A stretch of 32,983 bases of DNA from Lachnospiraceae bacterium UBA6998. Lineage in GTDB: Bacteria; Bacillota; Clostridia; Lachnospirales; Lachnospiraceae. Positions 16,281 through 32,983 of this stretch are shown here, piece after piece; within the stretch, counting starts at the first letter, position 1; the number at the start of each line of letters is the position of its first letter. The position numbers and the translations under genes were made by a program. The notes below the pieces were generated by a model. That model was not told where the DNA came from and ran no database searches. It saw only the letters and a list, made by a program, of their open reading frames with translations. The stretch is from assembly GCA_002448395.1 (NCBI GenBank), contig DJXS01000067.1, positions 15,793-48,775 of the forward strand, given 5' to 3'.

Positions 16281-16312
16281 CGTTATGTACCTCCTCATGC
16301 TCAGGCTGCGGG

Positions 16313-17134: not shown

Positions 17135-17206
17135 TTTTTGTTTCCTCCTTGTCGGTTCAGGTCCTGCCCGGTTCCTGCGGCTTCAGATATTGCTGCAAAA
17201 ACAAAA

Positions 17207-17231
17207 CGGACATACTGCCTCAGTATGTCCG
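17207..17231 (-). terminator. Riboswitch-controlled terminator ahead of thiM
   Basis: A perfect 11-bp stem (CGGACATACTG / CAGTATGTCCG) with a 3-base loop is followed on the minus strand by TTTTGTTTTT. It lies between the TPP aptamer and thiM, so it is the likely expression platform that ends transcription when TPP is bound. Confidence 0.88.
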
Positions 17232-17252
17232 CTCAGCGATCAAATATCTCCG

Positions 17253-17341
17253 CATCCCTACGTTGGCATTATCCAAATCAGGTTACCGGGTCGGCACTGA
17301 CAAAAGCGCCCTCTCAGCCTGCTGCGGCAAGCTCCCCTTTT
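17253..17341 (-). ncRNA. TPP (thiamine pyrophosphate) riboswitch
   Basis: Read on the minus strand, the conserved THI-box parts appear in order: AGGGGAGC, the GCAGGCTGAGAGGGC core, GACCC, then AACCTGATTTGGATAATGCC and AACGTAGGGATG. Position, orientation and the downstream terminator all fit TPP-dependent shut-off of thiM-thiE-HAD. Confidence 0.96.
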
Positions 17342-17407
17342 GCAATATTATCTTACCATGTCAAAACAATGTCAACATCCTATGTAAATCAATACCGGTA
17401 AAGCAGA

Positions 17408-18778: not shown

Positions 18779-19693
18779 TCAGATCTCCCAGGCCTTTCTA
18801 CCGTCCAATACGCCGGTCACGATCTCTATGAGATCCTCCGCATACCTCGGCAGGTCTTCTCCCTTTCTCCAGCACGCATAGAAATGCCGGTGATTTTCAA
18901 CTCCTTTCAGAGGATAAAATACCCCCTGTTTTATGACGGTTTCGTCAAAATAGATATCCGGGCACAGCATACATGCCCCGCAGGATACTGTGACACGCTT
19001 GGCCATCTCGAGGGAATCCACTTCCATCAGGATCTTGGGATCAATATCAAGCATCCGGAACAGCTGGTCCTGCACTACCCTGATGCTGTGTCCCTGTTTG
19101 AGGCTGACGAACTGTTCGCTCCGCGCCTCCGTAAGATCGATCGGCGTCCCGGAAGCAAACCGTTCTGCCAGTCTGCTGGACTTTCCCACCAGTATACCTG
19201 TGGTCTCCTTCTCGATCAGCCTGTAGTTAAACCGGGCGCTGGTGGACTCCAAAGCCGCGAAGGCGAGATCGATCTCACCATATCGCAGAAGATCTTCCAT
19301 TCTCACACTTCCCGTCTCCCGCAGTTCCAACGAAACGTTGGGATAACGGGTGATGAATTCCGGCATTGCCTGAGGAAGTATCCTCATTCCGCGCTGCACG
19401 CTGATCCCCAGACGCAGATGTCCGCTGTTCTCCTGCCGGATATCCTGAAGCTGGTTCTCCAGACGGTCATTGGCGACGATCATCGTGTGTGCGCACTCCA
19501 GATATTTCTCCCCTGCGTAGGTAAGTCGCAGCGGCAGGGATGTCCGGTCAAACAGCGCTACGCCCAGCTCTTTCTCCACCTGGCGCACCATCTGGCTCAG
19601 GGAGGGCTGGCTGATATACAATTTTTTGGCTGCCGCTGTTATGCTTCCCTCATTCGCGATAGTCTGAATATACTGTGCCTGCTTGATATTCAT
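18779..19693 (-). CDS. LysR-type transcriptional regulator
   Basis: This 304-aa regulator has an N-terminal winged HTH (MNIKQAQYIQTIANEGSITAAAKKLYISQPSLSQ, about 1-60), a linker helix and a periplasmic-binding-type effector domain (about 90-295; HLRLGISVQRG, GEIDLAFAALES). It is transcribed away from the citDEF-transporter operon and upstream of the MATE gene. LysR proteins commonly control the divergent gene, so a citrate-responsive role is plausible (inference); control of the MATE gene is equally possible. The effector is not known. Confidence 0.93.
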   Translation of the reverse strand: MNIKQAQYIQTIANEGSITAAAKKLYISQPSLSQMVRQVEKELGVALFDRTSLPLRLTYAGEKYLECAHTMIVANDRLENQLQDIRQENSGHLRLGISVQRGMRILPQAMPEFITRYPNVSLELRETGSVRMEDLLRYGEIDLAFAALESTSARFNYRLIEKETTGILVGKSSRLAERFASGTPIDLTEARSEQFVSLKQGHSIRVVQDQLFRMLDIDPKILMEVDSLEMAKRVTVSCGACMLCPDIYFDETVIKQGVFYPLKGVENHRHFYACWRKGEDLPRYAEDLIEIVTGVLDGRKAWEI

Positions 19694-19909
19694 AGATAAG
19701 CCCTTTTATACCATATATTATCATATAATCCTACGTTATTTCGTTTATTCCGATATATGTACAGCATAAATCTTTCGGTCACCAAGATATAATATAAATA
19801 CTATATCCTTATTGTCAATTCAGTATTTGAAGATTATGGCAATCTATGTAATTATAGTAATGTAGCAACATAAAGTTTATCCAATCTTAGGGGAAAGGAG
19901 AAATGTCAA
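19694..19909. promoter_or_regulatory. AT-rich divergent control region between lysR and citD
   Basis: This 216-base stretch is clearly more AT-rich than its surroundings. For the rightward operon TTGTCA (19812-19817), a 17-base spacer and TATGGC (19835-19840) form a weak promoter; AGGGGAAAGGAG serves citD. For lysR, GGTATAAAA on the minus strand is a possible -10. Short dyads such as ATTATCATATAAT lie between and could be LysR sites, but no clear T-N11-A box was singled out. Confidence 0.45.
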
Positions 19910-20209
19910 ATGGATATCAAAAAGTCAGCGGTTGCCGGCACTCTGGAATCCAGTGACTGCATGGTAACAGTTGAGCCTGGCAGGGGGCAGGTCGATCTTG
20001 ATCTCGACAGCGTAGTCATCCGCCAGTACGGCAGGCAGATCCGCAAAGTGATCTATGATACCCTGAAACGTCTTGACGTCAATGATGTCAAAGTGACCGT
20101 TGTAGATAAAGGCGCTCTCGACTGCACCATCAAAGCGAGAGTTGAATGCGCCGTCTACCGCAGCAACGACATCAAGGGCGGTTTACCTTGGGGAGGTGCC
20201 ATCAGATGA
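19910..20209 (+). CDS. citD: Citrate lyase acyl carrier protein (gamma subunit) CitD
   Basis: This 99-aa acyl carrier protein carries the 2'-(5''-triphosphoribosyl)-3'-dephospho-CoA group of citrate lyase. The attachment serine is Ser14 in GTLESSD, the same place as in characterised CitD. The remainder matches the family (VTVEPGRGQVDLDLDSVV, IYDTLKRLDV, DKGALDCTIKARVE). The stop overlaps the citE start by four bases. It is the first gene of the citrate operon. Charging requires CitG and CitX, which are not in the window. Confidence 0.95.
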   Translation: MDIKKSAVAGTLESSDCMVTVEPGRGQVDLDLDSVVIRQYGRQIRKVIYDTLKRLDVNDVKVTVVDKGALDCTIKARVECAVYRSNDIKGGLPWGGAIR

Positions 20210-21105
20210 ATCCAAACCTGAAAAGACTTCGCAGGAGCATGATGTTCCTGAATTGCCAGAAACCCGGCCTGATCAAGGATCCCTATGTATACGGACCCGA
20301 TTCGATCATGCTGGATCTTGAGGACGCGGTAGCGGAGCGCGAGAAAGATGCCGCCCGTTATTCGCTCTACCACGCGCTGCAGGAAATCGATTACCGCGGC
20401 GTAGAGCGCGTTGTACGTATTAATGGTCTTGACTCCGATCTCTGGGAAGAAGACATCCGCTGCTCCGTAGCAGGCGGCTGCGACGCGATCCGTATTCCCA
20501 AGACCGAGACCGCAGAAGATGTCAAGAGAGTTGAAGCTGCCGTTATCGCAGCTGAAAAGGAATTCGGCATCGAAGAAGGACGCACGCTGATCATGGCGGC
20601 TCTTGAGTCTGCCAAGGGCGTATTGAACGCTCTCGAGATCTGCGAGGCTTCTCCCCGTCTGTTTGGTATCGCTCTTTCCGGCGGCGACTACACCAAAGAT
20701 CTTCAGACCTCGATCTCCGGCACAGGCGTCGAGCTCATGGGCGCACGCCAGCACATGATCATTGCGGCACGCGCTGCAGGCAAACAGTGTTTTGACACTG
20801 TCTACACGAATCTGAACGACATGGAAGGTTTCCGCAAGGATGTCGAGACCATCCACACGATGGGATTTGACGGAAAGAGTATCATCAATCCCAGACAGAT
20901 TCCGATCGTGCACGACATCTACACTCCCAAGCCGAAGGAAATCATCTTCGCTGAGAAGGTCGTTCGCGAAATCGACACCAAGAAGGCAATGGGCATCGGC
21001 GTCTTCACCGTTGACGGCAAGATGATCGACATCGCTTTCTATGACGGCGCAAAGCGCACTCTCGCGCTCGCCAAAGCATCCGGCGTTTATAAAGGAGAGC
21101 TGTAA
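20206..21105 (+). CDS. citE: Citrate lyase beta subunit (citryl-ACP lyase) CitE
   Basis: CitE splits citryl-ACP into oxaloacetate and acetyl-ACP. The 299-aa TIM-barrel protein shows SMMFLNCQKPG, the metal/acid motif IMLDLEDAVAEREKD (about 34-48), VRINGLDSDLWEED, RIPKTE, ALESAKGVLNA, and FGIALSGGDYTKDLQ. The start at 20206 uses the GGGGAGG site inside the citD end and gives the ATGA overlap. An upstream in-frame ATG at 20146 would duplicate citD coding and is rejected. Confidence 0.95.
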   Translation: MNPNLKRLRRSMMFLNCQKPGLIKDPYVYGPDSIMLDLEDAVAEREKDAARYSLYHALQEIDYRGVERVVRINGLDSDLWEEDIRCSVAGGCDAIRIPKTETAEDVKRVEAAVIAAEKEFGIEEGRTLIMAALESAKGVLNALEICEASPRLFGIALSGGDYTKDLQTSISGTGVELMGARQHMIIAARAAGKQCFDTVYTNLNDMEGFRKDVETIHTMGFDGKSIINPRQIPIVHDIYTPKPKEIIFAEKVVREIDTKKAMGIGVFTVDGKMIDIAFYDGAKRTLALAKASGVYKGEL

Positions 21106-21125
21106 TGTTATTCATTCATAGCGAG

Positions 21126-21180
21126 CTCTCCTTTGCAGATTGCTCTGCAATCTGTCACCACGCTACTAAGAGCGTAAGGA
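21126..21180 (+). promoter_or_regulatory. Intercistronic structure before citF
   Basis: A small hairpin GCAGATTGC-TCT-GCAATCTG sits at about 21136-21154. A CTCTCCTTT stretch upstream is complementary to the AAGGAG ribosome site of citF (near 21177-21182), so the citF ribosome site could be masked. Whether this matters in the cell is unknown. Confidence 0.3.
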
Positions 21181-21190
21181 GATTTGTGAT

Positions 21191-22744
21191 ATGAGAAATG
21201 CAGTCGGTCGGGAAATTCCCGATGAAATCCTCAGAGCAACGGGGAAAGAGCCCTTTCAGGGCAATAATTATAAAAATGGCGTGCCTTTCAGAAGACAGGC
21301 TCCCATTATCCGTCCTGTAATGGACAATCAGCACAGCAAGATGTGCAAGGACATCCGTGAAGCGCTGATCAAGTGCAAAGCACACAGCGGAATGACCGTC
21401 AGCTTCCACCATCATTTCCGTGAAGGCGACCTGATCGTCAACATGGTCATGAAGGAGATCCACGACATGGGTCTTAAGAACATCACACTGGCAGCCACTT
21501 CCCTGGGCAAGGCTCACGAAGCTCTTGTTCCCATGATCGAAGACGGCACCATCACCCGCATCGAGGCATCCGGTGTCCGCGGCAAGATCGGTGAAGCGAT
21601 CTCCAACGGCAAACTCAAGGGCCTTGCGATCATGCGCAGCCACGGCGGACGTGTCCGCTCTCTGGTAACGGGTGAGACAAAGGTTGATATCGCATTCATC
21701 GGCGCTCCCACATCCGATGATTACGGCAACCTCCGCGGTGTCGGCGGCAAGACCAACTGCGGCGTTCTGAGTTACTCCCACGTCGACGGCGACTGTGCTG
21801 AGTATGTAGTAGCGATCACTGACTGCCTGGTACCTTTCCCGAACTTCCCGGCACACATCTCCATGACCAAGGTTGACTGTGTTGTCGTTGTGGATGCCAT
21901 CGGTATCCCCGAGAAGATCGCTACAGGCGCAGCGAAACCCACTACCGATCAGCGCAAGCTGATGATGGCTGAATACTGCACGCAGGTCGTTGTGAACACT
22001 CCTTACTTCAAGGATGGTTTCTCCTATCAGACCGGCGTTGGCGGAGCTTCCATCGCTTCGACCATCTCCCTGACCCGCATCATGAAAGAGCGCAACATCA
22101 AGATGGGATTTGGCGTAGGCGGATTGACCAAACCCATGTGCGACCTTCTGGATATGGGCATGGTCCGCGTCCTGATGGATACGCAGGCTTTCGACCTTGA
22201 CGCAGTCAACAACGTCATCAACCCCGCTCACCACCGCATCACTGCAGGTGCATACGCGAACCCCTTCAACAAGGGCGCGTTCGTCAACAAACTTGATTAT
22301 GTCATTCTCGCATCCCTTGAGGTTGACGTTCACTTCAACTGCAACGTAGTGGTAGGCTCCGACGGTGTCATCACCGGCGCGCAGGGCGGACATCCTGATA
22401 CCGCCCAGGGCGCTAAGTGCACCATCGTCATCTGCCCGCTTCTGCAGGGCCGTATCCCCGCGATCTGCTCGGAAGTCACGACCGTAACCACTCCCGGCGA
22501 GAGCGTGGACATCGTAGTCACAGACTACGGCGTAGCTGTCAACCCTAACCGTCACGATCTGCTGGAGTGCCTCCGCAAAGCGGACTGCGTACCGCTTAAG
22601 ACCATCGAAGAGCTGCGCGACATCGCGTATTCCATCGTTGGCGAGCCTGATCCCGTAGAATTCGGCGACCGCATCGTCGGTATCATCGAAGCCCGTGACG
22701 GCACCATCATGGACGTTGTCCGTCAGGTCAAGCCTGCCGAATAA
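21191..22744 (+). CDS. citF: Citrate lyase alpha subunit (citrate:ACP transferase) CitF
   Basis: CitF exchanges acetyl for citryl on the CitD prosthetic group. The 517-aa protein is full length for the family and shows MRNAVGREIPDEI at the start, TVSFHHHFREGD, SSGVRGKIGEA-like ASGVRGKIGEAIS, RSHGGRVRS, GAPTSDDYGN, FGVGGLTKPM and YGVAVNPNRHDL. AAGGAG lies before the ATG at 21191. It is third in the operon; with CitD and CitE it completes the core citrate lyase. The product oxaloacetate could feed pyruvate or amino-acid formation, with acetate released. Confidence 0.96.
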   Translation: MRNAVGREIPDEILRATGKEPFQGNNYKNGVPFRRQAPIIRPVMDNQHSKMCKDIREALIKCKAHSGMTVSFHHHFREGDLIVNMVMKEIHDMGLKNITLAATSLGKAHEALVPMIEDGTITRIEASGVRGKIGEAISNGKLKGLAIMRSHGGRVRSLVTGETKVDIAFIGAPTSDDYGNLRGVGGKTNCGVLSYSHVDGDCAEYVVAITDCLVPFPNFPAHISMTKVDCVVVVDAIGIPEKIATGAAKPTTDQRKLMMAEYCTQVVVNTPYFKDGFSYQTGVGGASIASTISLTRIMKERNIKMGFGVGGLTKPMCDLLDMGMVRVLMDTQAFDLDAVNNVINPAHHRITAGAYANPFNKGAFVNKLDYVILASLEVDVHFNCNVVVGSDGVITGAQGGHPDTAQGAKCTIVICPLLQGRIPAICSEVTTVTTPGESVDIVVTDYGVAVNPNRHDLLECLRKADCVPLKTIEELRDIAYSIVGEPDPVEFGDRIVGIIEARDGTIMDVVRQVKPAE

Positions 22745-22786
22745 TTCCATATTGCTTTTTTAAGCTTTTACTGAGGGGAAATGTGT

Positions 22787-22817
22787 CGGCGCGCGGGTCC
22801 GGAATGCCCGCGTGCCG
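22787..22817 (+). terminator. GC-rich hairpin between citF and the transporter
   Basis: Arms CGGCGCGCGGG and CCCGCGTGCCG pair with one wobble around a 9-base loop. No T tract follows, so it is better seen as a stability or attenuation element that could lower or adjust transporter expression than as a full stop. Confidence 0.45.
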
Positions 22818-22845
22818 GCGGAATAACTGAAAGGAGATACTCTTT

Positions 22846-24252
22846 ATGAGTAATACTATTGTTGGTATTTTGGGATTGCTGACAATCATTGCGATTGTTG
22901 TAACTCTGTTCCAGAGCAAAACACAACCGGCTATCGCTTTCATCGTATGGCCTACGATCCTCGCTCTGATCCTGGTCGTCACCGGCCGTTATTCTTTCGA
23001 CAATATCGCCGCGATGATCAAAAGCGGATTCGGAAGCACAGGCCCTACAGCGGCTCTGTTCGTCTTCTCGGTTCTATACTTTGGTATAATGACCGATGCG
23101 GGTATGTTTGATGTCATCATCGGTAAGCTGATGACCTTCGTCGGAGACAACGTAATCGGTGTCTGCGTCGTAACCTGCATCATCGCTCTGGTCGGCCATC
23201 TGGACGGCGGCGGCGCTTCCACATTCTGTATCGTCGTTCCCGCTATGATGCCCGTATTCGACCGCATGCACATGCGCAGAACTTCCATGCTTCGTATCGC
23301 GGTCCTGGCAATGGGTGTTCTGAACCTGATGCCTTGGGCAGGCCCCACAATGCGTGCCGCTTCCGTTCTCGGTATTGAGGCAGGCAGCCTGTGGCAGACC
23401 ATCCTTCCCATCCAGGTTTTCGGTGTTATTCTGGCTCTTGCACATTCTGTACTTACAGGTTTCCAGGAGAAGGCGCGCGGCGCCGGCCTCCACGGCAAAC
23501 TTGCTGATTTAGAGGGAGAAGTTAAGGTTACCGAGTCTGTTGTCGCTGATGAGAACGACGAGCTCAAGCGCCCCGGACTTTTCATCTTCAACATTGCTCT
23601 GACTCTCTGCGTTATCGCAATGCTGATCTGGGACGTATTCCCCAGCTACTATCCTTTCATGATCGGTGTGGCGATCGCACTGTTCGTGAACTACGGCTTT
23701 ACTGCTAAGATGCACAAGAAGATCATCAACCTGCACGCAGGCCCGGCTCTTATGATGTGCTCCACTCTGATGGGCGCAGCCGTCCTGATGGGTGTTCTTA
23801 CATCCTCTCTGGGTGCAGACGGCGCTGTTATCTCCGCTAAGACAATGGATCTGCCTGCAGACGCTATTCCTTCTGTAGTCCGCTGCCTTGCTAACATCGT
23901 TGCCGGCATCATGCCTGCATCTCTTGGTCAGCACCTGCCTCTGGTTATCGGTATCCTTTCCGTTCCGCTGGCACTGGCATTCGATACAGACTCCTACTTC
24001 TATGGCATGCTTCCCGTTGTTATCGGAATCGGCCAGGCATTCGGCGTCGAGGCTCTGCCGATCGCTGTCGCTATGGTTGTCTGCCGTAACTGCGCTACCT
24101 TCATCAGCCCCATGGTTCCTGCTACCCTGCTTGGTACAGGTCTCGCGGAGGTCGATATCAAGGACCACATCAAGGCAAGCTTCCTGTATGTATGGGCATT
24201 CTCCATCCTCTGCATGCTTGTCGCGGTAGCATTCGGAATTATGCCTCTGTAA
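22846..24252 (+). CDS. CitMHS-family citrate transporter
   Basis: This 468-aa membrane carrier has about twelve helices. The family regions are evident: TAALFVFSVLYFGIMTDAGMFD, ALVGHLDGGGASTFCIVVPAM (the conserved LDGxG motif) and LNLMPWAGPTMRAASVLG, with a charged cytoplasmic loop near 205-245. CitMHS proteins import citrate, often as a divalent-metal complex, with H+ symport. Its place behind citDEF makes citrate uptake for the lyase the natural role. AAAGGAG precedes the ATG at 22846, and a terminator follows. Confidence 0.93.
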   Translation: MSNTIVGILGLLTIIAIVVTLFQSKTQPAIAFIVWPTILALILVVTGRYSFDNIAAMIKSGFGSTGPTAALFVFSVLYFGIMTDAGMFDVIIGKLMTFVGDNVIGVCVVTCIIALVGHLDGGGASTFCIVVPAMMPVFDRMHMRRTSMLRIAVLAMGVLNLMPWAGPTMRAASVLGIEAGSLWQTILPIQVFGVILALAHSVLTGFQEKARGAGLHGKLADLEGEVKVTESVVADENDELKRPGLFIFNIALTLCVIAMLIWDVFPSYYPFMIGVAIALFVNYGFTAKMHKKIINLHAGPALMMCSTLMGAAVLMGVLTSSLGADGAVISAKTMDLPADAIPSVVRCLANIVAGIMPASLGQHLPLVIGILSVPLALAFDTDSYFYGMLPVVIGIGQAFGVEALPIAVAMVVCRNCATFISPMVPATLLGTGLAEVDIKDHIKASFLYVWAFSILCMLVAVAFGIMPL

Positions 24253-24794: not shown

Positions 24795-24926
24795 ATGCTC
24801 CCCTCCTGTAGTTGCCACCCCTGGTTTGTATTTGAGAGTATTATCAGCACTCCTTATACGCAAAAAACTCTTATCTATATTTTATACCAGAATGGCACAG
24901 ATATCATCTGAAAAAGCACAAAAAAA

Positions 24927-24959
24927 CCTCCTCCGGCGCTGTCATGCGCACAGAGGAGG
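24927..24959 (-). terminator. Terminator at the end of the fld-like cluster
   Basis: The stem CCTCCTC / GAGGAGG with an inner GCGC pair is followed on the minus strand by GGTTTTTTTTGTGC-like sequence, 36 bases past the stop of the YczE-type gene. Confidence 0.85.
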
Positions 24960-24995: not shown

Positions 24996-25685
24996 TTATT
25001 CTTTGCTCTCTCCGAAGCAGATCTTCTGAACGATCGGGGAAAGCGGCTTTCTTATGATCGCAATGACCTTACCCGTGACGAGTGCCGCGAGGATCGTGCC
25101 CTCTCTGATGCGGACTCCCGGATCACGGAAGGGGATCAGGTGAAGGAATACGACCGTAAGAATCACGCCGAGCAGGACAACTGCGCAGTCCACGATAGTC
25201 TTGACTTTTGTGAAGGGCTGACCAGCTTTCTTGGCGATAGCCATTGTCATGCCCTCCATGGGCATCGGAACGAGATCCACATCCAGATACAGGAAGACGC
25301 CGAATGCTACGAACACAATGCCGACGCACTGCATTCCCAGACGTCCGATGTACCCTCCGGGAAAGAGGAAATCTCCTACCATCCATTTCGTGAAGTTGAC
25401 AAAATATCCAAAGATCGTGGAAAAGACGATCTGGAACAGGTTGACCGGATTGAACTCTTTGCCCAAAAGCAGGATCTGCACAAGGATATAGAAGCAGAAT
25501 ACGATCGTAACACAGGTTCCGGGCTTCATTTTTACGATATCACTGATGACATACGGGAGAGAGTTGACGGGTGAGATTCCCAGGTCGGAATTGGCAGAGA
25601 ATGCCACTCCCAGCGCCATGAAGAACAAAGCGATACAGTAAAACAGGACACGAATCCCCCACTGGGGCAGTGTGCTTTTTCTCAT
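24996..25685 (-). CDS. YczE/YitT-type (DUF6198) membrane protein
   Basis: This 229-aa integral membrane protein has about five hydrophobic helices. Family marks are the GVAFSANSDLGISPVNSLPYVIS segment after the first helix and LYLDVDLVPMPMEGMTMAIA later, both typical of YczE-like proteins. The biochemical role of the family is not established; members often sit next to transporters or regulators. Here it is last in the fld-like cluster, separated from the YkvI-type gene by about 100 bases that contain a hairpin, so co-transcription is likely but may be reduced. Confidence 0.8.
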   Translation of the reverse strand: MRKSTLPQWGIRVLFYCIALFFMALGVAFSANSDLGISPVNSLPYVISDIVKMKPGTCVTIVFCFYILVQILLLGKEFNPVNLFQIVFSTIFGYFVNFTKWMVGDFLFPGGYIGRLGMQCVGIVFVAFGVFLYLDVDLVPMPMEGMTMAIAKKAGQPFTKVKTIVDCAVVLLGVILTVVFLHLIPFRDPGVRIREGTILAALVTGKVIAIIRKPLSPIVQKICFGESKE

Positions 25686-25718
25686 CAGACTATTCTCCTG
25701 TTCTGTTTAAAAGTTCCC

Positions 25719-25747
25719 GGGGAGACCGCTTAAGAGCAGCGCTCCCC
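25719..25747 (-). terminator. Hairpin between YkvI-type and YczE-type genes
   Basis: GGGGAG and CTCCCC arms enclose a partly paired 17-base loop. On the minus strand only a short ACTTTT tail follows, so partial termination or transcript processing is more likely than a full stop. Confidence 0.4.
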
Positions 25748-25786
25748 AGGATGTAGGGAAAATTAGAAATGGTTTAGCATTGCTGA

Positions 25787-26962
25787 TTACTCGTCGATAC
25801 CTGTAGCTTCGATGTTGTTCTCTTTCAGGTAGCTCTTCTGGATCTTTCTGTTTGCGAGAACAATAGCAGGGAAGATCAGCAGAGGCAGGTTGAGGTATCC
25901 GAGGATGGTGTAACCTGTGGATACAAGCTTAACGATACCGATCTTGGAAGCAGCTGCGCATGCGAGCAGCAGTACGACTACAAGAAGGCCGTCCTTAAGA
26001 GGAGCTTCTTCCGTAGGCTTGCGATAGAGCTTAGAGTATCTTGCAACGGCACCGAAGCTGAATCCTACAGCAGTGGAAAGAACAGCGATGAAAACTGTGA
26101 TAACATACACGAGCTTCAGGCCGGAGAATCCGAGCGCTGTCAGTGTGCCGTAGAAAGGAAGCGGGTTTGTAGCTGTGTCGAGAACATTGTAGTTCTCAAG
26201 TGTGGTAGCGGAAAGGAAGAACAGGCTCAGTACGACGAGCATGCATGCGTTTCCGCAAATACCGATGATGGCGCCGAGTCTTGTGGTCTTGCGATCAGGA
26301 AGAGTCGGAGCGATGGAAGAAATGTTGCCGATTACGTTAGCCTGGAAGGAAGCATAGATAACGCCGCTCCAAAGTGCTCCAAGGAAGCTCGGGTTGATTC
26401 CTTCAACTGTTCCGGCGCTGATGTTCGCGAGCGCCTGGCCAAGATGAAGCTTGCCTGTGGACGCGCTCATGATGATGATGACTGCGAGAACAGCGATAAC
26501 AAGATACATCATGTAAGAAGATGCGCGGGCAACGAGCTTAGCACCGTATGCGCAAAGAAGGCCTGCGCAGACGATAACGGCACCTACGCCTACCCAGTAG
26601 TTCAGGCCGAACTGGCTGTTGAGCAGGTTTCCGATCGCGCTGAGGGATCCGCCGAGAGCGGTCAGCATAACGATGATGAAGGAGAAGTCAAGAAGATATA
26701 CGATCCAATCGACTCCCCAGACCTTCTTGGTCCAGTCTGCATAGTTGTAAGTCTTGTAGATTCTTGAAAACTCTGCTGAGCAATAAATGCAGTAGCCGAG
26801 CAGGGCCATAGCAAGGATGCTTGCGAGAGTGCCCCAAATACCGTACTTGACCCAGTAAACGAGGATCTGTGTACCGGATGCTACGCCGGGACCAAAGTGT
26901 GTGCCCATCCAGACGCATGCCATTCCGATGGCGATTGATAAAGTTGACTGTTTCTTCTCCAT
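25787..26962 (-). CDS. YkvI-family membrane transporter
   Basis: This 391-aa protein has about ten membrane helices and resembles YkvI/APC-superfamily carriers of Bacillota. It opens with SIAIGMACVWMGTHFGPGVASGTQILVYWVKYG, an unwound first helix with the GPGxASG motif near which ligand binds in LeuT-fold carriers. The start at 26962 is chosen for the AAAGGAGG site upstream; the longer frame reads through that site. It follows the acyl-CoA dehydrogenase gene in the fld-like cluster, which suggests import of the amino acid or hydroxy acid used there, or export of the reduced product (inference). Confidence 0.85.
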   Translation of the reverse strand: MEKKQSTLSIAIGMACVWMGTHFGPGVASGTQILVYWVKYGIWGTLASILAMALLGYCIYCSAEFSRIYKTYNYADWTKKVWGVDWIVYLLDFSFIIVMLTALGGSLSAIGNLLNSQFGLNYWVGVGAVIVCAGLLCAYGAKLVARASSYMMYLVIAVLAVIIIMSASTGKLHLGQALANISAGTVEGINPSFLGALWSGVIYASFQANVIGNISSIAPTLPDRKTTRLGAIIGICGNACMLVVLSLFFLSATTLENYNVLDTATNPLPFYGTLTALGFSGLKLVYVITVFIAVLSTAVGFSFGAVARYSKLYRKPTEEAPLKDGLLVVVLLLACAAASKIGIVKLVSTGYTILGYLNLPLLIFPAIVLANRKIQKSYLKENNIEATGIDE

Positions 26963-27000
26963 TTGTTTCCTCCTTTTGTGTGCTTTTCGCATATCTATCA

Positions 27001-27031
27001 CTGCTTACGGCTTTCCCCAAACCGTAAGCAG
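27001..27031 (-). promoter_or_regulatory. Perfect intercistronic hairpin between acyl-CoA dehydrogenase and transporter genes
   Basis: CTGCTTACGG and CCGTAAGCAG form a perfect 10-bp stem with an 11-base loop. No T tract follows on the minus strand, so a transcript-processing or stabilising role is more likely than termination. It sits 38 bases before the transporter start. Confidence 0.55.
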
Positions 27032-27060
27032 CAACATTCTGTAGGTACAAACTCCGCCTA

Positions 27061-28203
27061 TCAGCGAAGAAGCGCGCCGGAGATGACCATCTGCTGAACC
27101 TGAGAGCTTCCTTCGTAGATGGAAGTGATGCGGACATCGCGGTACAGACGCTCGATCTCGTACTCCTGAGAGTAACCATAGCCGCCGTGCAGCTGCAGGG
27201 ACTTATTAACGATCTCAATAGCAGCCTCGGTGGTGAAATATTTTGCCATGGAAGCAGCCTTTGTTGCGTCTTCCTTGTTGTCCATGAGCCATGCTGCGTT
27301 GTAGACAAGGTTTCTTGCTGCATTGAGCTTGGTCTCCATATCAGCCATCATGAATGCCAGAGCTTGGTTCTTGCAAAGAGGCTTGCCGAACTGGATACGG
27401 TTCTTGGTGTGCTCAACAGCAAGATCAAGAGCTTCCTGAGCGATGCCCAGAGCCATGGAAGCGACGCCGACACGGCCGACATTCAGAGTCTTCATAGCGT
27501 TGATGAAGCCCATGTTCTCCTTGCCGAGCAGGCAGTCAGCGGGAACGCGGACATCTTCCAGGATCAGATCGCTGACCGGAACACCGTGCTGGCCCATCTT
27601 CTCTTCGTGCTTACCAACGGATACACCGGGAAGATCCTTGGAAACGATGAACGCGCTGATGCCCTTTGTGCCCTTATCCGGATCAGTCTTTGCATAGACG
27701 ATGTGATAATCCGCGATGGGAGCCATTGTGATGAAGCACTTTACGCCGTTGAGGATGTAGCTGTCGCCGTCCTTAACTGCCTTTGTCTTAAGGGAGCCGG
27801 CATCGGAACCTGCGTTGGGCTCAGTCAGAGCAAAGGAAATCTTGGTGCTGCCGTCTGCTACGCCGGGAAGGTATTTCGCCTTCTGCTCTTCTGTTCCGGA
27901 CAGAAGGATCGGCTGTGTGGACAGGGAGTTAGCAGAAGAAATGAACAGAGTAGCGGTCGCGCACTTCTTCGCGATCTCTTCCATAACACAGACATAGCTG
28001 CGCATGTCAAGGCCGAGTCCGCCGTACTCCTCCGGGATCTTCAGACCGTAAAATCCGAGTTCAGCCATCTCCTGAACAACTTCTTCCGGAAATACGTTGG
28101 TCTTGTCGATCTCAGCTGCGATCCCTGCCAGGGTGCCTTCTGCAAACTGCTGTGCCATCTCGCGGATGGATTCGTGATCTTCATTGAAAAATGCACTTGC
28201 CAT
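27061..28203 (-). CDS. Acyl-CoA dehydrogenase (enoyl-CoA-reducing direction likely)
   Basis: This 380-aa flavoprotein of the short-chain acyl-CoA dehydrogenase group shows FALTEPNAGSDAGSLKTKA (flavin and substrate binding), the YILNGVKCFITMAPIADYHIV strand region, and LQLHGGYGYSQEYEIERLYRDVRITSIYEGSSQVQ, placing the catalytic base at Glu364 as in SCAD/MCAD. FAD-dependent interconversion of acyl-CoA and enoyl-CoA uses electron-transfer flavoprotein. It lies 17 bases behind the acyl-CoA synthetase gene, and with the dehydratase it would reduce the enoyl-CoA product, as AcdA does in C. sporogenes. No etfA or etfB is present in the window. Confidence 0.94.
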   Translation of the reverse strand: MASAFFNEDHESIREMAQQFAEGTLAGIAAEIDKTNVFPEEVVQEMAELGFYGLKIPEEYGGLGLDMRSYVCVMEEIAKKCATATLFISSANSLSTQPILLSGTEEQKAKYLPGVADGSTKISFALTEPNAGSDAGSLKTKAVKDGDSYILNGVKCFITMAPIADYHIVYAKTDPDKGTKGISAFIVSKDLPGVSVGKHEEKMGQHGVPVSDLILEDVRVPADCLLGKENMGFINAMKTLNVGRVGVASMALGIAQEALDLAVEHTKNRIQFGKPLCKNQALAFMMADMETKLNAARNLVYNAAWLMDNKEDATKAASMAKYFTTEAAIEIVNKSLQLHGGYGYSQEYEIERLYRDVRITSIYEGSSQVQQMVISGALLR

Positions 28204-28220
28204 AGTTTTGTCCTTTCTTT

Positions 28221-29924
28221 TTATAAAATTGCCTTTGCATAGTTTCCTGTTGTTCCAACCGCTCGCAGCCCTGCTTCATCCGCAGCGTTTCTCGCGGCGA
28301 TCTCCTTGAGTTCTCCCAGGCGGACCTTTCCGCTTGCCGTCATCGGGAGCTCCCGGAATGTAAAAATGTATTTCGGAATCTTGAAGTAAGAAAGCCTCGG
28401 TTTTAAGAACCGCAGAAGCGCCGCGGCGTCAAAATCCTGTCCGTCTTCTACGACGATGCATGCCGCGATCTCCTCCTGTGTGAACTTGTTGGGAACACCG
28501 ACGACCTTTACTTCCTTCGTCATTCCGCTCGCGATGATCGCCTTTTCGATCTCTCTGGGAGAAATGTTCTCGCCGGACCGGATGATCATCTCTTTTCTTC
28601 TGCCTGTAATGCAGATCTCATCAAACTCGTTAAAGTATCCGATATCACCCGTCTTGAGCCAGCCGTCCTCCGTCATGGTATCCGCTGTCTCCTTGGGCAT
28701 CTTGTAGTACTCTTTGAAAATATTGAAGCCTGCAAGTTCCAGCTCACCCGGCAGTCCGTATACTCTCTTCTTCGTTCCGTCCGGGTTGACCACAGGATCC
28801 GCCGCTGTATCCCAGCCGACGATCTCTCCGGTTACGATATCCCTGACCCTCGCCATCGTATCTTCGTAGAAGGCGCCGCCTGTGACTTCTCCGCTTCTGA
28901 GAGGGTTGTCCCAGTCTGAGAAGGATCCGCTCGTTGACGCTTCTGTCATGCCAAAAGAGGGAATCAGGTGCGCCTGCGGGAATCTCCTGCAGATCTCCTT
29001 ATACTCTTCTGTCGTGATCACGCTTCCGCCGATGATGCCTGAACGAAGTGAACTTCCGTCGTATACTTCGTTTCCTTCCTTGCGGACCAGTGCCAGATAC
29101 ATACTGGGAACACCGAGCATTACCGTGCAGTGATAATCGCTGATGGCCTCCCAGACGCCCTGCGTCCTGAAGGACGGAATGATGTGCATCGTCATACCCA
29201 CGATCACGCTGCCCGCCAATGCGGTGTTAAGCCCGAATCCGTGGTACATGGAAACAGCCACAACAGTCTTGTCATCTGTGGTCCATCTCATGCACTTCTG
29301 TACGTGGAGATTGACGTTTACGATCCCGTAGTGAGTCAGCACAACCGGCTTAGCCTTGGATGTCGTTCCTGAGGTAAAGATGATGCAGGCAGGAGAATCT
29401 GAAGAAAGATTTTCCAGATTCCTGCGCATTTCCTGCAGAGGAAGGCGCTTTCTTCCTGATTCAGAAAAACTGTCAGGCTTAAGCCATTTGCCGGCTTCTC
29501 TCTCCTCGATATGGAGAAAATGTCTGATCTTAGGCGTTTTCTTACGGATCTGGGGGATCAGCTCGTCAAAAATAGTGCCGCGTGCGCCGGATCCATAGAA
29601 AAGTACTTCTACATCCGCCCGGTCGAGCTGGTCTATCATTTCATCCTGACTGTTGGCGGCATTGAGAACGACTACAACAGCTCCGATCTTGTACAGAGCA
29701 AGCACGCCCTGTGCAAACGCCGGAGAATTCTGGCTCCAGATGCCGACATGTGTGCCTTTCTGAATGCCATACAGACTCATAAAACGCGCCGCCAGAAGAT
29801 CCGTCACCTCGTCAAACTCCGACCATGTGCAGCTCCAGTCCCCGAATTCAATTGCGGTCTGCTGTCCTACTCTTGCTGCCGTCTCTTTGAGACAGCCGCC
29901 GATTGTCTTTTGAACCAGTTCCAT
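28221..29924 (-). CDS. Acyl-CoA synthetase (AMP-forming), FldL-like role
   Basis: This 567-aa ANL-superfamily ligase activates a carboxylic acid with ATP and CoA. Motifs in order are FTSGTTSKAKPVVLTH (A3), SFGMTEASTSG (A5), GWLKTGDIGYFNEFDEICITGRRKEMIIRSGENISPREIE (A7-A8) and PMTASGKVRLGEL with the catalytic Lys533 (A10). The start at 29924 has GGAGGAG 9 bases upstream; the longer frame is rejected. In C. sporogenes a ligase primes the fld cycle by making the first aryl-CoA, and this gene could do that or activate every substrate molecule, since no CoA-transferase gene is seen. Substrate specificity is unknown. Confidence 0.93.
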   Translation of the reverse strand: MELVQKTIGGCLKETAARVGQQTAIEFGDWSCTWSEFDEVTDLLAARFMSLYGIQKGTHVGIWSQNSPAFAQGVLALYKIGAVVVVLNAANSQDEMIDQLDRADVEVLFYGSGARGTIFDELIPQIRKKTPKIRHFLHIEEREAGKWLKPDSFSESGRKRLPLQEMRRNLENLSSDSPACIIFTSGTTSKAKPVVLTHYGIVNVNLHVQKCMRWTTDDKTVVAVSMYHGFGLNTALAGSVIVGMTMHIIPSFRTQGVWEAISDYHCTVMLGVPSMYLALVRKEGNEVYDGSSLRSGIIGGSVITTEEYKEICRRFPQAHLIPSFGMTEASTSGSFSDWDNPLRSGEVTGGAFYEDTMARVRDIVTGEIVGWDTAADPVVNPDGTKKRVYGLPGELELAGFNIFKEYYKMPKETADTMTEDGWLKTGDIGYFNEFDEICITGRRKEMIIRSGENISPREIEKAIIASGMTKEVKVVGVPNKFTQEEIAACIVVEDGQDFDAAALLRFLKPRLSYFKIPKYIFTFRELPMTASGKVRLGELKEIAARNAADEAGLRAVGTTGNYAKAIL

Positions 29925-29961
29925 AGGTCGCTCCTCCGGTAAACTTCCGTGACCGGATCCT

Positions 29962-29982
29962 GCGGGCAGGGGAGCTGCCCGC
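29962..29982 (-). promoter_or_regulatory. Intercistronic hairpin between dehydratase and ligase genes
   Basis: A perfect 8-bp stem GCGGGCAG / CTGCCCGC with a 5-base loop is flanked by GACCGG and CCGGGTC, which can extend the pairing. There is no T tract. It lies in the 75-base gap before the ligase start. Confidence 0.5.
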
Positions 29983-29999
29983 TTCACCGGGTCTTCTAA

Positions 30000-31118
30000 T
30001 TACAGCAGGTCCTTGAAGGTCTCGATCGCAGTTCTGGCCTGCTCGTAGTTAACCATCTGACGGTCTACTTCGATAAGAACGCAAGGGATCTCCGCTTCCG
30101 CGCATGCGCGCTTGATCAGAGGATAATCAAATTCCTCGGGATCGCAGAACTTGGTCAGGACGACCAGTACGCCCTTTGCCTTAGCTGCCTTAGCGTCGCT
30201 GACGATCTTATCTACGCGCTTTTTCTCTACATCGTAGAGAACACTGCAGTTGTCCATAGCGCAGAACTTGGAAGCGAGACGGTCCAGCGCGGTTTCGCCC
30301 TCTGCGGGTGCGTCTGTGCGGTACTGTCTGCTCTCAGCCGCGACGTCGTCGCAGACGATCTGCATGCCGTTGTCGTCCAGGATCTCAAGGAGTCCGGGAG
30401 CATCGGCGAGGATACCGCTGGTCATGATGCGGATCTTATCCTCTGCAGGAGCTTCTGCTTCAAGAACTGCCAGCAGTTCGTTCACGAGAGCTGTGTGCTC
30501 TTCTTTTCTCATGAAGAAAGCGCTCTTGAAGATATCGCTTCTCTGTGCGCATGTGATCTCGGAATGCGCTGCCAGTGCGGGAACCAGCGCTCTCATTGCC
30601 GCATTGTGGGCGTTGTAGACTTCGATAGATTCAGCGAGTTTCTCGTCGTCAAACTTAAGACCGGTCGCCTCTTCAAGGCCCCTGATCACGTACTCATAGC
30701 CGGCCTTTGTGAATGTGTGGCCGAAAGCGGGCTTTCTGTTCTGGGGATAGGTCATGGCGATAAAGGGGATGCCCTTAACCGCGTATTTCCAGTTCTGTCC
30801 GATAACTTTAAGGGAATCGCACAGGCTGGGGATCACGATTGCGGACGCTCCTTCGTATACGCCCTTGATTCCCAGCTCGACAATGCTCTGCATGATCGTG
30901 CAGATAAATGCCGGGAAGTATTTTTTGGCCTCGTTGATCTGAACGTCTGCTCCCCAAACGCCCATGGGAACCATTCCCATGGAATGGATGATCTCTTCGG
31001 GTGTATAGACAGGGGCAGTCAGAACTACCTTGCGGCCTTCTGCCAGATATTTGTCCATCAGCTTCCTGGGGTCTGCGACCGCCTCATGGAAGCATGCGAG
31101 TAATTCCTGTTTATTCAT
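30000..31118 (-). CDS. 2-hydroxyacyl-CoA dehydratase subunit, FldC/HadC-like (beta)
   Basis: This 372-aa protein is one half of the Fe-S heterodimer that removes water from (R)-2-hydroxyacyl-CoA through a ketyl radical. It matches the FldC pattern throughout: APVYTPEEIIHSMGMVPMGVWGADVQ, KKYFPAFICTIMQS, IPSLCDSLKVIGQNWK, DDVAAESRQYRT, and VVLTKFCDPEEFDYPL followed by VLIEVDRQMVNYEQARTAIE. The cysteines in FICT, SLCDS and KFCDPEE are candidate cluster ligands. AGGAGGAAT precedes the ATG at 31118. It lies 83 bases after the alpha-subunit gene. It resembles phenyllactyl-CoA dehydratase more than lactyl-CoA types, from memory of those sequences. Confidence 0.92.
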   Translation of the reverse strand: MNKQELLACFHEAVADPRKLMDKYLAEGRKVVLTAPVYTPEEIIHSMGMVPMGVWGADVQINEAKKYFPAFICTIMQSIVELGIKGVYEGASAIVIPSLCDSLKVIGQNWKYAVKGIPFIAMTYPQNRKPAFGHTFTKAGYEYVIRGLEEATGLKFDDEKLAESIEVYNAHNAAMRALVPALAAHSEITCAQRSDIFKSAFFMRKEEHTALVNELLAVLEAEAPAEDKIRIMTSGILADAPGLLEILDDNGMQIVCDDVAAESRQYRTDAPAEGETALDRLASKFCAMDNCSVLYDVEKKRVDKIVSDAKAAKAKGVLVVLTKFCDPEEFDYPLIKRACAEAEIPCVLIEVDRQMVNYEQARTAIETFKDLL

Positions 31119-31201
31119 TTATTCCTCCTTATTCCGGAATGTGCTGTGTAAGTTACGCTGTCAGGCCGCGTTTACGACCGTCAAAATAGCGCTTCCCGCC
31201 A

Positions 31202-32428
31202 TCACTTCCGTGCTTCCATAATTTCCATAAGGCCCTGGACGCGGGTGTCATACTGCGCCTCAGAGAAGTTGCGGGGATCTGCCTGGTCGCCGTCGAAGCT
31301 TGCTACAGGGATGTCGCACTCTTCGCCGATCTGGCGGCTCATCTCATACATGAATCCGCTCCAAAGCTTGCAGCTGCGGTTGGTGTGGACCAGAAGGCCT
31401 TCGACCTTGTTGTTCTTGCAGAGCGTGACGCGCTTGTCGCGTGCGTACTCGAGGTTGATGGCGTTCGGCACCTTGCAGTATGCGCGGCACATATCGTCGA
31501 AGTCGTCATAAATGAATCCGAAAGCGTCGGCGTAGATGGTGGTGACCATGTTGATGCCTCTGCTCTTAAGTCCTGTGGATGTCACGCGAAGCCAGGGCCA
31601 GCATGCGATGCCTTCGAACATGATCCTGTACTTCTCTTCCGTACGGAATGTGCTGACGCCCTTCTCGTGGTTCTCTTCGTACTCCTGATACAGCTTCTCC
31701 ATAGCTTCCGCCGCCTCAAGTTTGCCGCGGGCGGTGACCATGACTGCCATGTGGTTGAGCAAGTCGAAGCCGTTGAAAGGTGAGGGCTCATAGTGAGCGC
31801 AAGCGGTAGCCTTGAGCCATGCACGGCTGGTTCTTCCGCTGATCTCTCTGACTTCGTTGTACTTCTCCTCGCTCCACTTCTTGCCGGTCAGTTCCTCGAG
31901 CTGCTTGATGGCTGCGCGGAACTGGTCGCGGACATAAGCGACTTCAGCGTCGGATACTTCGTAGTCAGGGTTAAAGGGGATATCGATCATGATCATGGGG
32001 ATATTGAGTTCCTTAGCCAGGTTCTCATACCACTTGATCATGCAGTTGCAGATATTATTACAACAGAGAAGGAAATCGGGCTGGGGCATATCCTGCTCCG
32101 GCGCGCTCTTAACCTTGGCATAGGCAAGGCTGATCCTTGCGTACGCGCAGATGTCGTTGGAATATCCGTCTGCTTCACTGATGTTGCACATGCGCTCGCC
32201 GGCGCCGCGGGCCGCGATACCTGCCGCCTGGTTCTCGGGGTAAACTACTGCCAGGCCGAGGGTCTCGGGAATTTCCACGGGGAAGTTGCTGGAGCACCAG
32301 CCTACCATTTCACCGCGTTCCTTGGCAGCCTGTGCGGAAGAATATGCTTCTGCCGCGATCTTGCCAAGTCTTGCCTTCGCTGAATTCGGATCCAGCGGCG
32401 GACGTTTTTTCTTAACTTCTTCTGCCAT
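31202..32428 (-). CDS. 2-hydroxyacyl-CoA dehydratase subunit, FldB/HadB-like (alpha)
   Basis: This 408-aa partner subunit matches FldB closely in order and wording: EMVGWCSSNFPVEIPETLG, VVYPENQAAGIAARG, DFLLCCNNICNCMIKWYENLAKELNIPMIMIDIP, FNGFDLLNHMAV, MFEGIACWPWLR, and NRSCKLWSGFMYEMSRQ followed by VASFDGDQADPRNFSEAQYDTRVQG. The cysteines in CCNN, ACWP and RSCKL are candidate Fe-S ligands. A GAAAGGATCGATCG sequence precedes the ATG at 32428. The gene lies 18 bases after the activator gene. The strong similarity to arylacetyl-type dehydratases suggests an aromatic or branched 2-hydroxy acid, but the substrate cannot be fixed from sequence. Confidence 0.93.
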   Translation of the reverse strand: MAEEVKKKRPPLDPNSAKARLGKIAAEAYSSAQAAKERGEMVGWCSSNFPVEIPETLGLAVVYPENQAAGIAARGAGERMCNISEADGYSNDICAYARISLAYAKVKSAPEQDMPQPDFLLCCNNICNCMIKWYENLAKELNIPMIMIDIPFNPDYEVSDAEVAYVRDQFRAAIKQLEELTGKKWSEEKYNEVREISGRTSRAWLKATACAHYEPSPFNGFDLLNHMAVMVTARGKLEAAEAMEKLYQEYEENHEKGVSTFRTEEKYRIMFEGIACWPWLRVTSTGLKSRGINMVTTIYADAFGFIYDDFDDMCRAYCKVPNAINLEYARDKRVTLCKNNKVEGLLVHTNRSCKLWSGFMYEMSRQIGEECDIPVASFDGDQADPRNFSEAQYDTRVQGLMEIMEARK

Positions 32429-32446
32429 GTCGATCGATCCTTTCTA

Positions 32447-32983
32447 TTATTTTTTCACTTGTTTCTGGTATGCATAAAGCGCTGCGCCGATCGCTCCGAA
32501 CAGCTGGGCCTGTGGAGAGAACAGTATGGGCTGCCCGATGCTGCGGGATAGCGCGTTTCTGACGCCTGCGTTCTGCGCAACGCCTCCGCTCATACAGACA
32601 TCCGGAACAATATTGATTCTCTTGGCCAGATTTCCCACACGGACTGCTACGCTGCTGCAGATTCCCGCGATCAGGTCCTCCATCTCCACGCCGTTGGCGA
32701 GCTGGCTGATCACTTCGCTCTCCGCGAATACCGTGCAGGTACTGGAGATCTGGGCCGGGTTTACGGATTTTTCGCAGTACTGCGCGAATTCATCCACCGG
32801 CACGACCAGAATGTTGGCCATGACGTCCAGAAACCGCCCTGTACCGGCCGCGCACTTGTCGTTCATGAGGAAGTTGTTCATGCGGCCCTTTTCATCCAGG
32901 GAGATCACTTTGGCGTCCTGTCCGCCGATATCGATGATCGTGCGGACTGTGGGGAAAGTATGGTGCGCGCCGAGTCCGTGGCA
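32447..32983 (-). CDS. Dehydratase activator ATPase, FldI/HadI-like (partial, 5' end beyond the window)
   Basis: The visible 178 C-terminal residues belong to the BadF/BadG/BcrA ATPase family. The activator is an ATP-driven homodimer that injects one electron into the dehydratase. The frame is open to the right edge, reading CHGLGAHHTFP before the first internal ATG. IIDIGGQDAKVI is the phosphate-binding motif. NDKCAAGTGRFLDVM and SSTCTVFAESEVI supply the two cysteines per subunit that hold the bridging 4Fe-4S cluster, and SGGVAQNAGV is the late ATP-binding motif. The gene order activator-alpha-beta matches fldI-B-C. The internal ATG at 32908 is not a real start. Confidence 0.93.
   Translation of the reverse strand, partial: CHGLGAHHTFPTVRTIIDIGGQDAKVISLDEKGRMNNFLMNDKCAAGTGRFLDVMANILVVPVDEFAQYCEKSVNPAQISSTCTVFAESEVISQLANGVEMEDLIAGICSSVAVRVGNLAKRINIVPDVCMSGGVAQNAGVRNALSRSIGQPILFSPQAQLFGAIGAALYAYQKQVKK

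What the first reader, a model, noticed from the sequence alone, without database searches (positions are those of the whole stretch)
24996..32983. Candidate complete uptake-to-reduction module built on an FldIBC-like dehydratase
Activator, dehydratase alpha and beta, AMP-forming acyl-CoA ligase, acyl-CoA dehydrogenase, a YkvI-type carrier and a YczE-type membrane protein run in one direction with short gaps. Known fld and had clusters also need a CoA-transferase (FldA or HadA); none is in the window. If none lies just upstream, each substrate may be activated by the ligase at ATP cost, or the ligase only primes a transferase encoded elsewhere. A dedicated carrier in the same cluster is a further difference from the C. 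sporogenes fld locus. The pathway could be an electron sink producing an arylpropionate or branched acid.
Basis: partly seen in the sequence, partly recalled or inferred. Interest (0 to 1): 0.75.

Follow-up and report, generated by a model that had tools for sequence, protein, structure and literature searches.

The report
Gut bacterial operon reducing hydroxy acids
Seven neighbouring genes of an uncultured gut bacterium make up most of an operon predicted to import a 2-hydroxy acid, likely an aromatic one, and to strip its hydroxyl group to dispose of electrons; the CoA-transferase gene that seemed to be missing is the next gene, past where this contig breaks off, in each close relative with the same gene order that can be read that far.

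Summary
The genes are real and in the stated order, but the central novelty claim fails. The contig ends inside the activator gene (178 of about 259 codons left). In relatives with the same operon (DNA 85-98% identical) a family III CoA-transferase comes next, then a divergent LysR gene; a transferase is in the cluster in 51 of 51 homologous loci with enough flank. So the ligase does not replace the transferase; priming of a 'CoA loop', as in caffeate respiration, is likelier. 'FldIBC-like' is not borne out by phylogeny: the dehydratase forms its own clade on the hydroxyglutaryl-CoA dehydratase side, outside the Had/Fld and lactoyl groups. What looks new is a hybrid: the acyl-CoA dehydrogenase is sister to a clade that contains the structurally solved caffeyl-CoA reductase CarC. 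By my cut-offs no homologous locus has both a ligase and a 2-hydroxyacid dehydrogenase (34 and 8 of 51), suggesting two feeding modes: imported hydroxy acid or amino acid. The window type lacks linked EtfBA genes and has a DUF6198 (YczE-like) membrane protein. The substrate is inferred, not shown.

The parts
32447..32983 (-). dehydratase activator (HadI/FldI type), 3' 178 codons; the 5' part is cut off by the contig end
   Evidence: PF01869 169.6 bits, TIGR00241 197 bits over its cut-off; contig ends here; full length 259 aa in L132
31202..32428 (-). 2-hydroxyacyl-CoA dehydratase alpha subunit, 408 aa
   Evidence: PF06050 239 bits; 3o3m_A HadB 407 bits; S37, E55, C84, C117, C346 of HadB conserved
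30000..31118 (-). 2-hydroxyacyl-CoA dehydratase beta subunit, 372 aa
   Evidence: PF06050 270 bits; 3o3m_B HadC 354 bits
28221..29924 (-). AMP-forming acyl-CoA ligase, 567 aa from the likely start at 29924 (ORF opens at 29987)
   Evidence: PF00501 208 bits; start by relatives L036, L037; 35% to A. woodii CarB
27061..28203 (-). acyl-CoA dehydrogenase, CarC-related enoyl-CoA reductase, 380 aa
   Evidence: best solved structure 6fah_C CarC 447.7 bits, next 378; tree
25787..27001 (-). APC/LeuT-fold secondary carrier; the real start may be the internal Met of MEKKQS
   Evidence: no Pfam/NCBIfam family; AlphaFold model pLDDT 81 and Foldseek
24996..25685 (-). DUF6198 / YczE-like membrane protein, 229 aa
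   Evidence: PF19700 43.3 bits over cut-off 27; model pLDDT 77, best PDB match only E 0.34
24920..24959 (-). terminator-like hairpin and U run after the last gene
   Evidence: fold of 71 nt -25.5 kcal/mol, z -3.57; not among the sites of the consensus scan, whose own count was near its shuffles

Best explanation
The window holds seven same-strand genes of a dehydratase operon, cut by the contig end inside the activator gene, that is predicted to import a 2-hydroxy acid (likely an aryl-lactate such as phenyllactate or 4-hydroxyphenyllactate), to dehydrate its CoA ester and to reduce the product to the saturated acid as an electron sink. Shown: the genes, their order, the contig break, the conserved cluster and catalytic positions, the transferase and LysR gene next to the same operon in relatives, and the kinship of the reductase to CarC. 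Inferred: the carrier brings the acid in; the ligase makes the first CoA ester at ATP cost; the family III transferase (predicted to lie just past the contig end) then moves CoA from the saturated product to fresh substrate, so that ATP is needed only for priming; the ATP-driven activator gives alpha/beta the starting electron for loss of water; the CarC-related reductase takes electrons from an EtfBA encoded elsewhere (one EtfBA pair is on contig 43, beside butyrate-pathway-like genes); the DUF6198 protein may let the product out.
For: Contig end. In the genus, 10 of 62 genomes have this reductase; of the 9 besides the source, 5 show LysR | transferase-activator-alpha-beta-ligase-reductase-carrier-DUF6198 with no etf gene in the stretch read; three contigs break before the place and one genome (G023) is arranged otherwise. 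Transferase in 51 of 51 loci with room, on either strand, 72 of 80 in all; CoA_transf_3 264 bits for that of L038. Order hadAIBC as in C. difficile (passage in PMC6384274). HadB positions conserved. CarC (6fah) lies inside the reductase clade of homologous loci (71-77% identity); the window's reductase is in the sister subclade, SH-aLRT 100. EtfA of homologous locus L055: CarE 649 bits, next 341. In an even class sample 5 of 8 CarC-type copies lie within 6 kb of this dehydratase type. Ligase 34, 2-hydroxyacid dehydrogenase 8, both 0 of 51; carrier in 32 of 80, never with the dehydrogenase. LarA-type isomerase beside some homologues.
Against: No transferase is readable in this genome: the best hit is 27% identical on another contig, so its presence here is inferred from relatives. 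The window's reductase is only 57% identical to CarC and sister to that clade, not in it. Alpha is nearer to the hydroxyglutaryl type (53-56%) than to HadB (48%), so an aromatic substrate does not follow from the dehydratase. The ligase is 35% identical to CarB and grouped with it only loosely. No etfBA lies in this operon type. 3 of 8 CarC-type copies, among them CarC itself, are not beside a dehydratase. The dehydrogenase-bearing loci are close kin, so 'never both' may rest on one or two events; it also rests on my 50% limit: ligase locus L096 has a 25% dehydrogenase hit, and more distant loci L175 and L176 have a ligase and a 26-27% hit in one stretch. No LarA match in this 73% complete genome.
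Confidence: 0.55

Rival explanations
1. Same operon, but the substrate is an aliphatic 2-hydroxy acid (for example 2-hydroxyisocaproate or 2-hydroxyisovalerate), so the product is a branched-chain acid as in the had pathway of C. difficile.
For: Operon order hadAIBC in relatives (PMC6384274 passage); HadB/HadC are the best solved structures for alpha and beta and the top NCBIfam models.
Against: Alpha and beta lie outside the Had group; NCBIfam scores 494 and 422 are under the cut-offs 750 and 700; the reductase is nearer to CarC (57%) than to the Had-linked reductase of L068 (50%).
Confidence: 0.2
2. The ligase and reductase serve free (hydroxy)cinnamic acids from plant cell walls, as CarB and CarC do for caffeate, and the dehydratase is a second entry point for aryl-lactates.
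For: CarC kinship; the car operon of A. woodii (L172, CarC 100%) has ligase-CarC-EtfB-EtfA without dehydratase; several near relatives are titled as rumen (RUG) or omasum genomes.
Against: The ligase is only 35% identical to CarB; the reductase is outside the CarC clade proper; the dehydratase would have no need to be in the same operon.
Confidence: 0.2
3. Hydroxyglutarate or lactate dehydratase module with a misleading neighbourhood.
For: Alpha and beta are on the hydroxyglutaryl side of the trees.
Against: No glutaconyl-CoA decarboxylase, lactate permease or family I transferase among 29 window frames scanned with Pfam, unlike the labelled loci, though the far side of the contig break is unseen; the clade is well supported as separate (96/90 for alpha, 100/100 for beta); a reductase gene follows.
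Confidence: 0.1
4. One reading: the ligase replaces the CoA-transferase and each turn costs ATP.
For: No transferase gene of that kind within the window.
Against: Contig end; transferase in 51 of 51 homologous loci with room and in relatives with the same operon at up to 97.8% DNA identity.
Confidence: 0.03

Closest known systems
hadAIBC-acdB-etfBA of Clostridioides difficile (2-hydroxyisocaproyl-CoA dehydratase)
   Same: Gene order transferase-activator-alpha-beta then a reductase, seen in relatives; conserved cluster and catalytic positions
   Different: Own dehydratase clade; no etfBA seen in the operon and no ldhA beside it; extra ligase, carrier and DUF6198 gene
carABCDE of Acetobacterium woodii (caffeyl-CoA reductase; found here as L172, CarC 100%)
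   Same: Ligase plus CarC-related reductase; a transferase alongside
   Different: The A. woodii transferase is family I, that of our relatives family III; no dehydratase there; the window type has no linked EtfBA
fld locus of Clostridium sporogenes (phenyllactate dehydratase)
   Same: Same chemistry is the likely one; dehydratase pair plus activator
   Different: Not in the group of P0205, which I took as FldB-like; that label is inference, and P0205 also passes the HadB model's cut-off (769 of 750 bits); authentic FldBC was not available
lap cluster of Coprococcus catus (lactoyl-CoA dehydratase) and its likely kin L123, L127
   Same: A carrier in the cluster; reductase candidates there are unlinked, so shared electron-transfer partners have a precedent (PMC8914356 passages)
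   Different: Separate clade; lactate permease and propionyl-CoA transferase there; here the reductase is in the operon
hgdCAB, 2-hydroxyglutaryl-CoA dehydratase (L126, L128, L129 by context)
   Same: Nearest labelled clade in both trees
   Different: 53-56% alpha, 35-37% beta identity; decarboxylase neighbours not seen here

Membership tests
Had/Fld-type 2-hydroxyacyl-CoA dehydratase system | two HGD-D subunits and a BadF/BcrA-type activator | tested here: met
Had/Fld-type 2-hydroxyacyl-CoA dehydratase system | alpha cluster cysteines and Ser37/Glu55 of HadB (roles recalled, positions tested) | tested here: met
Had/Fld-type 2-hydroxyacyl-CoA dehydratase system | family III CoA-transferase in the operon | tested here: inconclusive
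   contig ends before the place; met in relatives
Had/Fld-type 2-hydroxyacyl-CoA dehydratase system | alpha subunit inside the Had/Fld group | tested here: not met
   Had/Fld group itself 88/85; no authentic FldBC in the trees
Had/Fld-type 2-hydroxyacyl-CoA dehydratase system | 2-hydroxyacid dehydrogenase beside the operon | tested here: not met
   7 PF02826 matches in the genome, 6 over the cut-off, none on contig 66; none marked in L036, L037, L038, L043
Car-type (caffeate) operon | reductase inside the CarC clade | tested here: not met
   sister subclade, 57% identity
Car-type (caffeate) operon | linked EtfBA with ferredoxin-type EtfA | tested here: not met
   none in the window or in the stretches read of five relatives; present in many wider homologues
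Car-type (caffeate) operon | ATP-dependent ligase of the CarB kind | tested here: inconclusive
   35% identity, loose grouping
2-hydroxyglutaryl-CoA dehydratase | membership of that clade and decarboxylase neighbours | tested here: not met
   the stretch past the contig end is unseen
Lactoyl-CoA dehydratase (acrylate pathway) | membership of that clade, lactate permease or family I transferase nearby | tested here: not met
   the stretch past the contig end is unseen
Any of these | substrate turned over by the purified enzymes | not testable with these tools
   needs the bench

The most novel reading that the evidence does not exclude
A family of hybrid had-car operons, not found described in my searches, runs aryl-lactate respiration in gut and rumen bacteria: a dehydratase clade of its own feeds a caffeyl-CoA-reductase-type enzyme, a ligase primes a transferase-driven CoA loop, and a carrier supplies external substrate. 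In the window's subtype the reductase has dropped its bifurcating EtfBA partner from the operon and taken on a DUF6198 membrane protein instead.
Probability: 0.3. Interest if true: 0.65.

Novelty: new variant of a known kind. Interest (0 to 1): 0.42.

Why it matters
If right, aryl-lactates and perhaps cinnamates released from protein and plant matter are reduced by gut and rumen Clostridia through a route that a search for fldBC alone could miss, because its dehydratase is in another clade; 13 of 391 genomes of the class carry this alpha type at E <= 1e-170, the source included. It would also give the CarC reductase clade a role beyond caffeate: 5 of 8 CarC-type copies in that sample lie beside this dehydratase type, while one published reductase tree had A. 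woodii CarC as the only member of its clade in its data set (PMC8914356, passage read). The ligase-or-dehydrogenase split is directly testable with cultured species that carry each form.

Tried and rejected
Ligase in place of transferase: rejected. Fld membership: not met. Horizontal spread as the cause of 100% identical alpha: not pursued, since the identical copies in the genome search are in the same genus and the DNA differs (L134: 95 synonymous codons). Family name for the carrier: no Pfam, NCBIfam or PDB sequence match; only the fold could be read. DUF6198 fold: no PDB match. LarA group 22 substrate: two LarA papers (passages only) do not name that group under the searched terms. FldL and the C. 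sporogenes cluster layout: only listings and passages found; Hess 2013 and Bertsch 2013 are not held. Literature search for 'caffeyl-CoA reductase' with 'hydroxyacyl-CoA dehydratase' gave 0 papers in the held library; with 'CoA transferase' and 'Acetobacterium' 6. A window-type reductase elsewhere in the class: 1 of 391, its own genome.

Rows used and dropped: the alpha tree used 20 of 80 loci, the beta tree 19, chosen by hand for spread; 8 of the 240 listed proteins went in. The reductase tree left out L034, L035, L037, L038, L043, L054 as near copies and hits covering 90% of the query or less. The ligase tree left out 12 loci. The neighbour counts depend on 6-frame BLAST hits to my reference proteins and on a 2.6-kb gap limit; L097 and L103, counted without transferase, have one farther off.
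Full report
What is there. On the minus strand of 24996-32983 lie, in order of transcription, the 3' part of an activator gene, dehydratase alpha and beta, an AMP-forming ligase, an acyl-CoA dehydrogenase, a carrier and a DUF6198 protein, with gaps of 18, 83, 75 (ligase start taken at 29924), 17, 59 and 101 nt, followed by a terminator-like hairpin at 24959-24927 (z -3.57). Compared with a relative of the same genus (L134) alpha has 1 amino-acid change against 95 synonymous codon changes, the reductase 6 against 72, the ligase 65 against 199: these are genes under selection.

The missing transferase. The window is the end of contig 66 (48,775 bases) of a 2.42-Mb, 73% complete assembly, and the activator is open at that end. 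The only transferase hit in the rest of this assembly is 27% identical. Ten named loci have alpha at 93% identity or more (L034-L043); nine have room upstream and all nine have a transferase gene upstream of the activator (L041 has no room). In the genus, 10 of 62 genomes carry the reductase at E <= 1e-150; of the nine besides the source, five (L132, L133, L134, L148, L149) show a LysR gene and, divergent from it, transferase-activator-alpha-beta-ligase-reductase-carrier-DUF6198 (in L132 the last gene is cut); two contigs begin in beta, one breaks at the activator, and one, G023, is arranged otherwise. Five of these contigs have the lengths of named ones, so the two counts are not independent. 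L132 is 97.8% identical to the window over 7,440 bases. The transferase of L038 is CoA_transf_3, 264 bits.

The wider family. One search kept the best 80 of 199 relatives (alpha 77-100% identical). A script marked neighbours by tblastn and joined runs with gaps under 2.6 kb, either strand. Of 51 loci with more than 2.5 kb upstream and 6.5 kb downstream of alpha, 51 have a transferase, 34 a ligase, 8 a 2-hydroxyacid dehydrogenase (at least 50% identical to that of L104), none both. Of all 80: transferase 72 (the other eight have under 3 kb upstream), ligase 45, dehydrogenase 10, carrier 32 (28 with ligase, none with dehydrogenase). The dehydrogenase loci are mostly Mogibacterium-like kin, so the split may reflect few events, and weaker dehydrogenase hits exist in L046, L059, L096 (the last with a ligase) and, outside the 80, in L175 and L176. 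A LarA-type isomerase (NCBIfam group 22, 489 bits over its cut-off 400, for L074) is marked in L048, L074, L096, L130, L136 and L177, and Hungatella locus L055 carries a GlcD-type oxidase (PF02913) upstream. This is what one expects if hydroxy acids themselves are the food in the ligase loci; that is inference.

Phylogeny of the dehydratase. Reference clades were labelled by context: L126 (OAD gamma), L128 (OAD beta, PYC_OADA) and L129 (carboxyltransferase) as hydroxyglutaryl type; L123 (L-lactate permease), its near copy L127 and L124 (family I CoA transferase) as lactoyl type. HadB and HadC are from 3o3m. P0205 [Clostridium botulinum], 64% to HadB, is taken as FldB-like by inference; it also passes the HadB model's cut-off. 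In the alpha tree (38 rows) a 100/100 branch parts the window clade, the hydroxyglutaryl clade and P0240 from Had/Fld (itself 88/85), and within it the window clade of 22 rows is separate (96/90). The beta tree (30 rows, no FldC) also keeps the window clade apart (100/100), beside the hydroxyglutaryl clade. Alpha identity: hydroxyglutaryl 53-56, HadB 48, FldB-like 47, lactoyl 39-41%; beta: HadC 45, hydroxyglutaryl 35-37, lactoyl 38-39%. So the substrate cannot be read off the dehydratase.

Phylogeny of the reductase. Among solved structures CarC, the caffeyl-CoA reductase of Acetobacterium woodii, scores best (447.7 bits; next 378). In a 65-row tree (quick method, no bootstrap) CarC lies inside a clade of reductases from homologous loci 71-77% identical to it, all of them from loci without the 50% dehydrogenase; the window's reductase is in a sister subclade of eight rows (seven different), support 100, 57% to CarC. 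EtfA of L055 matches CarE at 649 bits against 341 for the next. In 391 class genomes CarC-type reductases (E <= 1e-150 to that of L055) occur in 7 genomes, 8 copies; 5 copies lie within 6 kb of the dehydratase (alpha 65-75% to the window's) and 3 do not, one of these being CarC itself in G149, whose operon is family I transferase-ligase-CarC-EtfB-EtfA. The window's own reductase type was found in 1 of 391 (its own genome, E <= 1e-165).

The window subtype. No row of its reductase subclade has an etfBA of its own beside it as far as can be seen: L135 and L098's second copy sit at the end of their stretches, and the latter follows an etfBA that stands behind another reductase. A DUF6198 gene follows, directly or after the carrier, in the genus loci, in L062 and in L101; L097/L136 lacks it. 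Erysipelotrichaceae loci L067, L075, L076, L080 carry a DUF6198-cytidylate-kinase fusion (domains scanned for L067) before a reductase that does have etfBA. The source genome has one EtfB hit at E <= 0.001, with an EtfA gene beside it, and one other acyl-CoA dehydrogenase hit, 48% identical, on another contig. Coprococcus catus is reported to have acyl-CoA dehydrogenases unlinked to its lactoyl-CoA dehydratase (PMC8914356, passages), so a shared Etf is plausible. YczE is described as a membrane protein of unknown function, possibly a transporter (PMC4944035, passages).

How it most likely works. The carrier brings in a 2-hydroxy acid; the ligase makes the first CoA ester; alpha/beta with the activator remove water; the CarC-related reductase saturates the double bond; the transferase hands CoA from product to new substrate, as the CoA loop of caffeate respiration does (that loop is recalled from Hess 2013, whose title alone I saw, in a reference list). 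Aryl-lactate is favoured because of the CarC kinship. Every step after gene content is inference.

Verdict. Real operon, good observation, wrong key inference. New variant of a known kind: a had-type dehydratase branch joined to a car-type reductase and ligase.

Noticed in passing
window 18779-24252: Citrate lyase operon: CitD-like 19910-20209, CitE-like 20146-21105, CitF 21191-22744, CitMHS permease 22846-24252, with a LysR gene at 18779-19693 on the other strand; it converges on the dehydratase operon.
   Followed up: partly
window 31202-32428: Alpha is almost frozen in sequence between species of the genus: 1 amino-acid against 95 synonymous differences in 408 codons (window and L134), while the ligase shows 65 against 199.
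   Followed up: partly
L048, L074, L096, L130, L136, L177: A LarA-type nickel-pincer isomerase (NCBIfam group 22 for L074) recurs beside this dehydratase family; a hydroxy-acid racemase would fit, its substrate is not known to me.
   Followed up: partly
L067:3834-5144, also L075, L076, L080: DUF6198 membrane domain fused to a cytidylate-kinase-like domain (scanned for L067) upstream of the reductase gene in four Erysipelotrichaceae loci; no explanation.
   Followed up: no
L055:471-8749: Hungatella locus has Ptb- and Buk-like genes, an acyl-CoA dehydrogenase with EtfBA and a GlcD-type oxidase upstream: looks like the oxidative half of a hydroxy-acid dismutation (Ptb and Buk named from their sequence by eye).
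   Followed up: no
L131:4857-10241: Butyrate-pathway-like genes of the source genome (thiolase, EtfA, EtfB, hydroxybutyryl-CoA dehydrogenase, crotonase; non-Etf names by eye) without an acyl-CoA dehydrogenase between them.
   Followed up: no
window 14978-18775: Thiamin genes (hydroxyethylthiazole kinase, thiamin phosphate synthase), a HAD hydrolase and a MatE transporter in a row.
   Followed up: no
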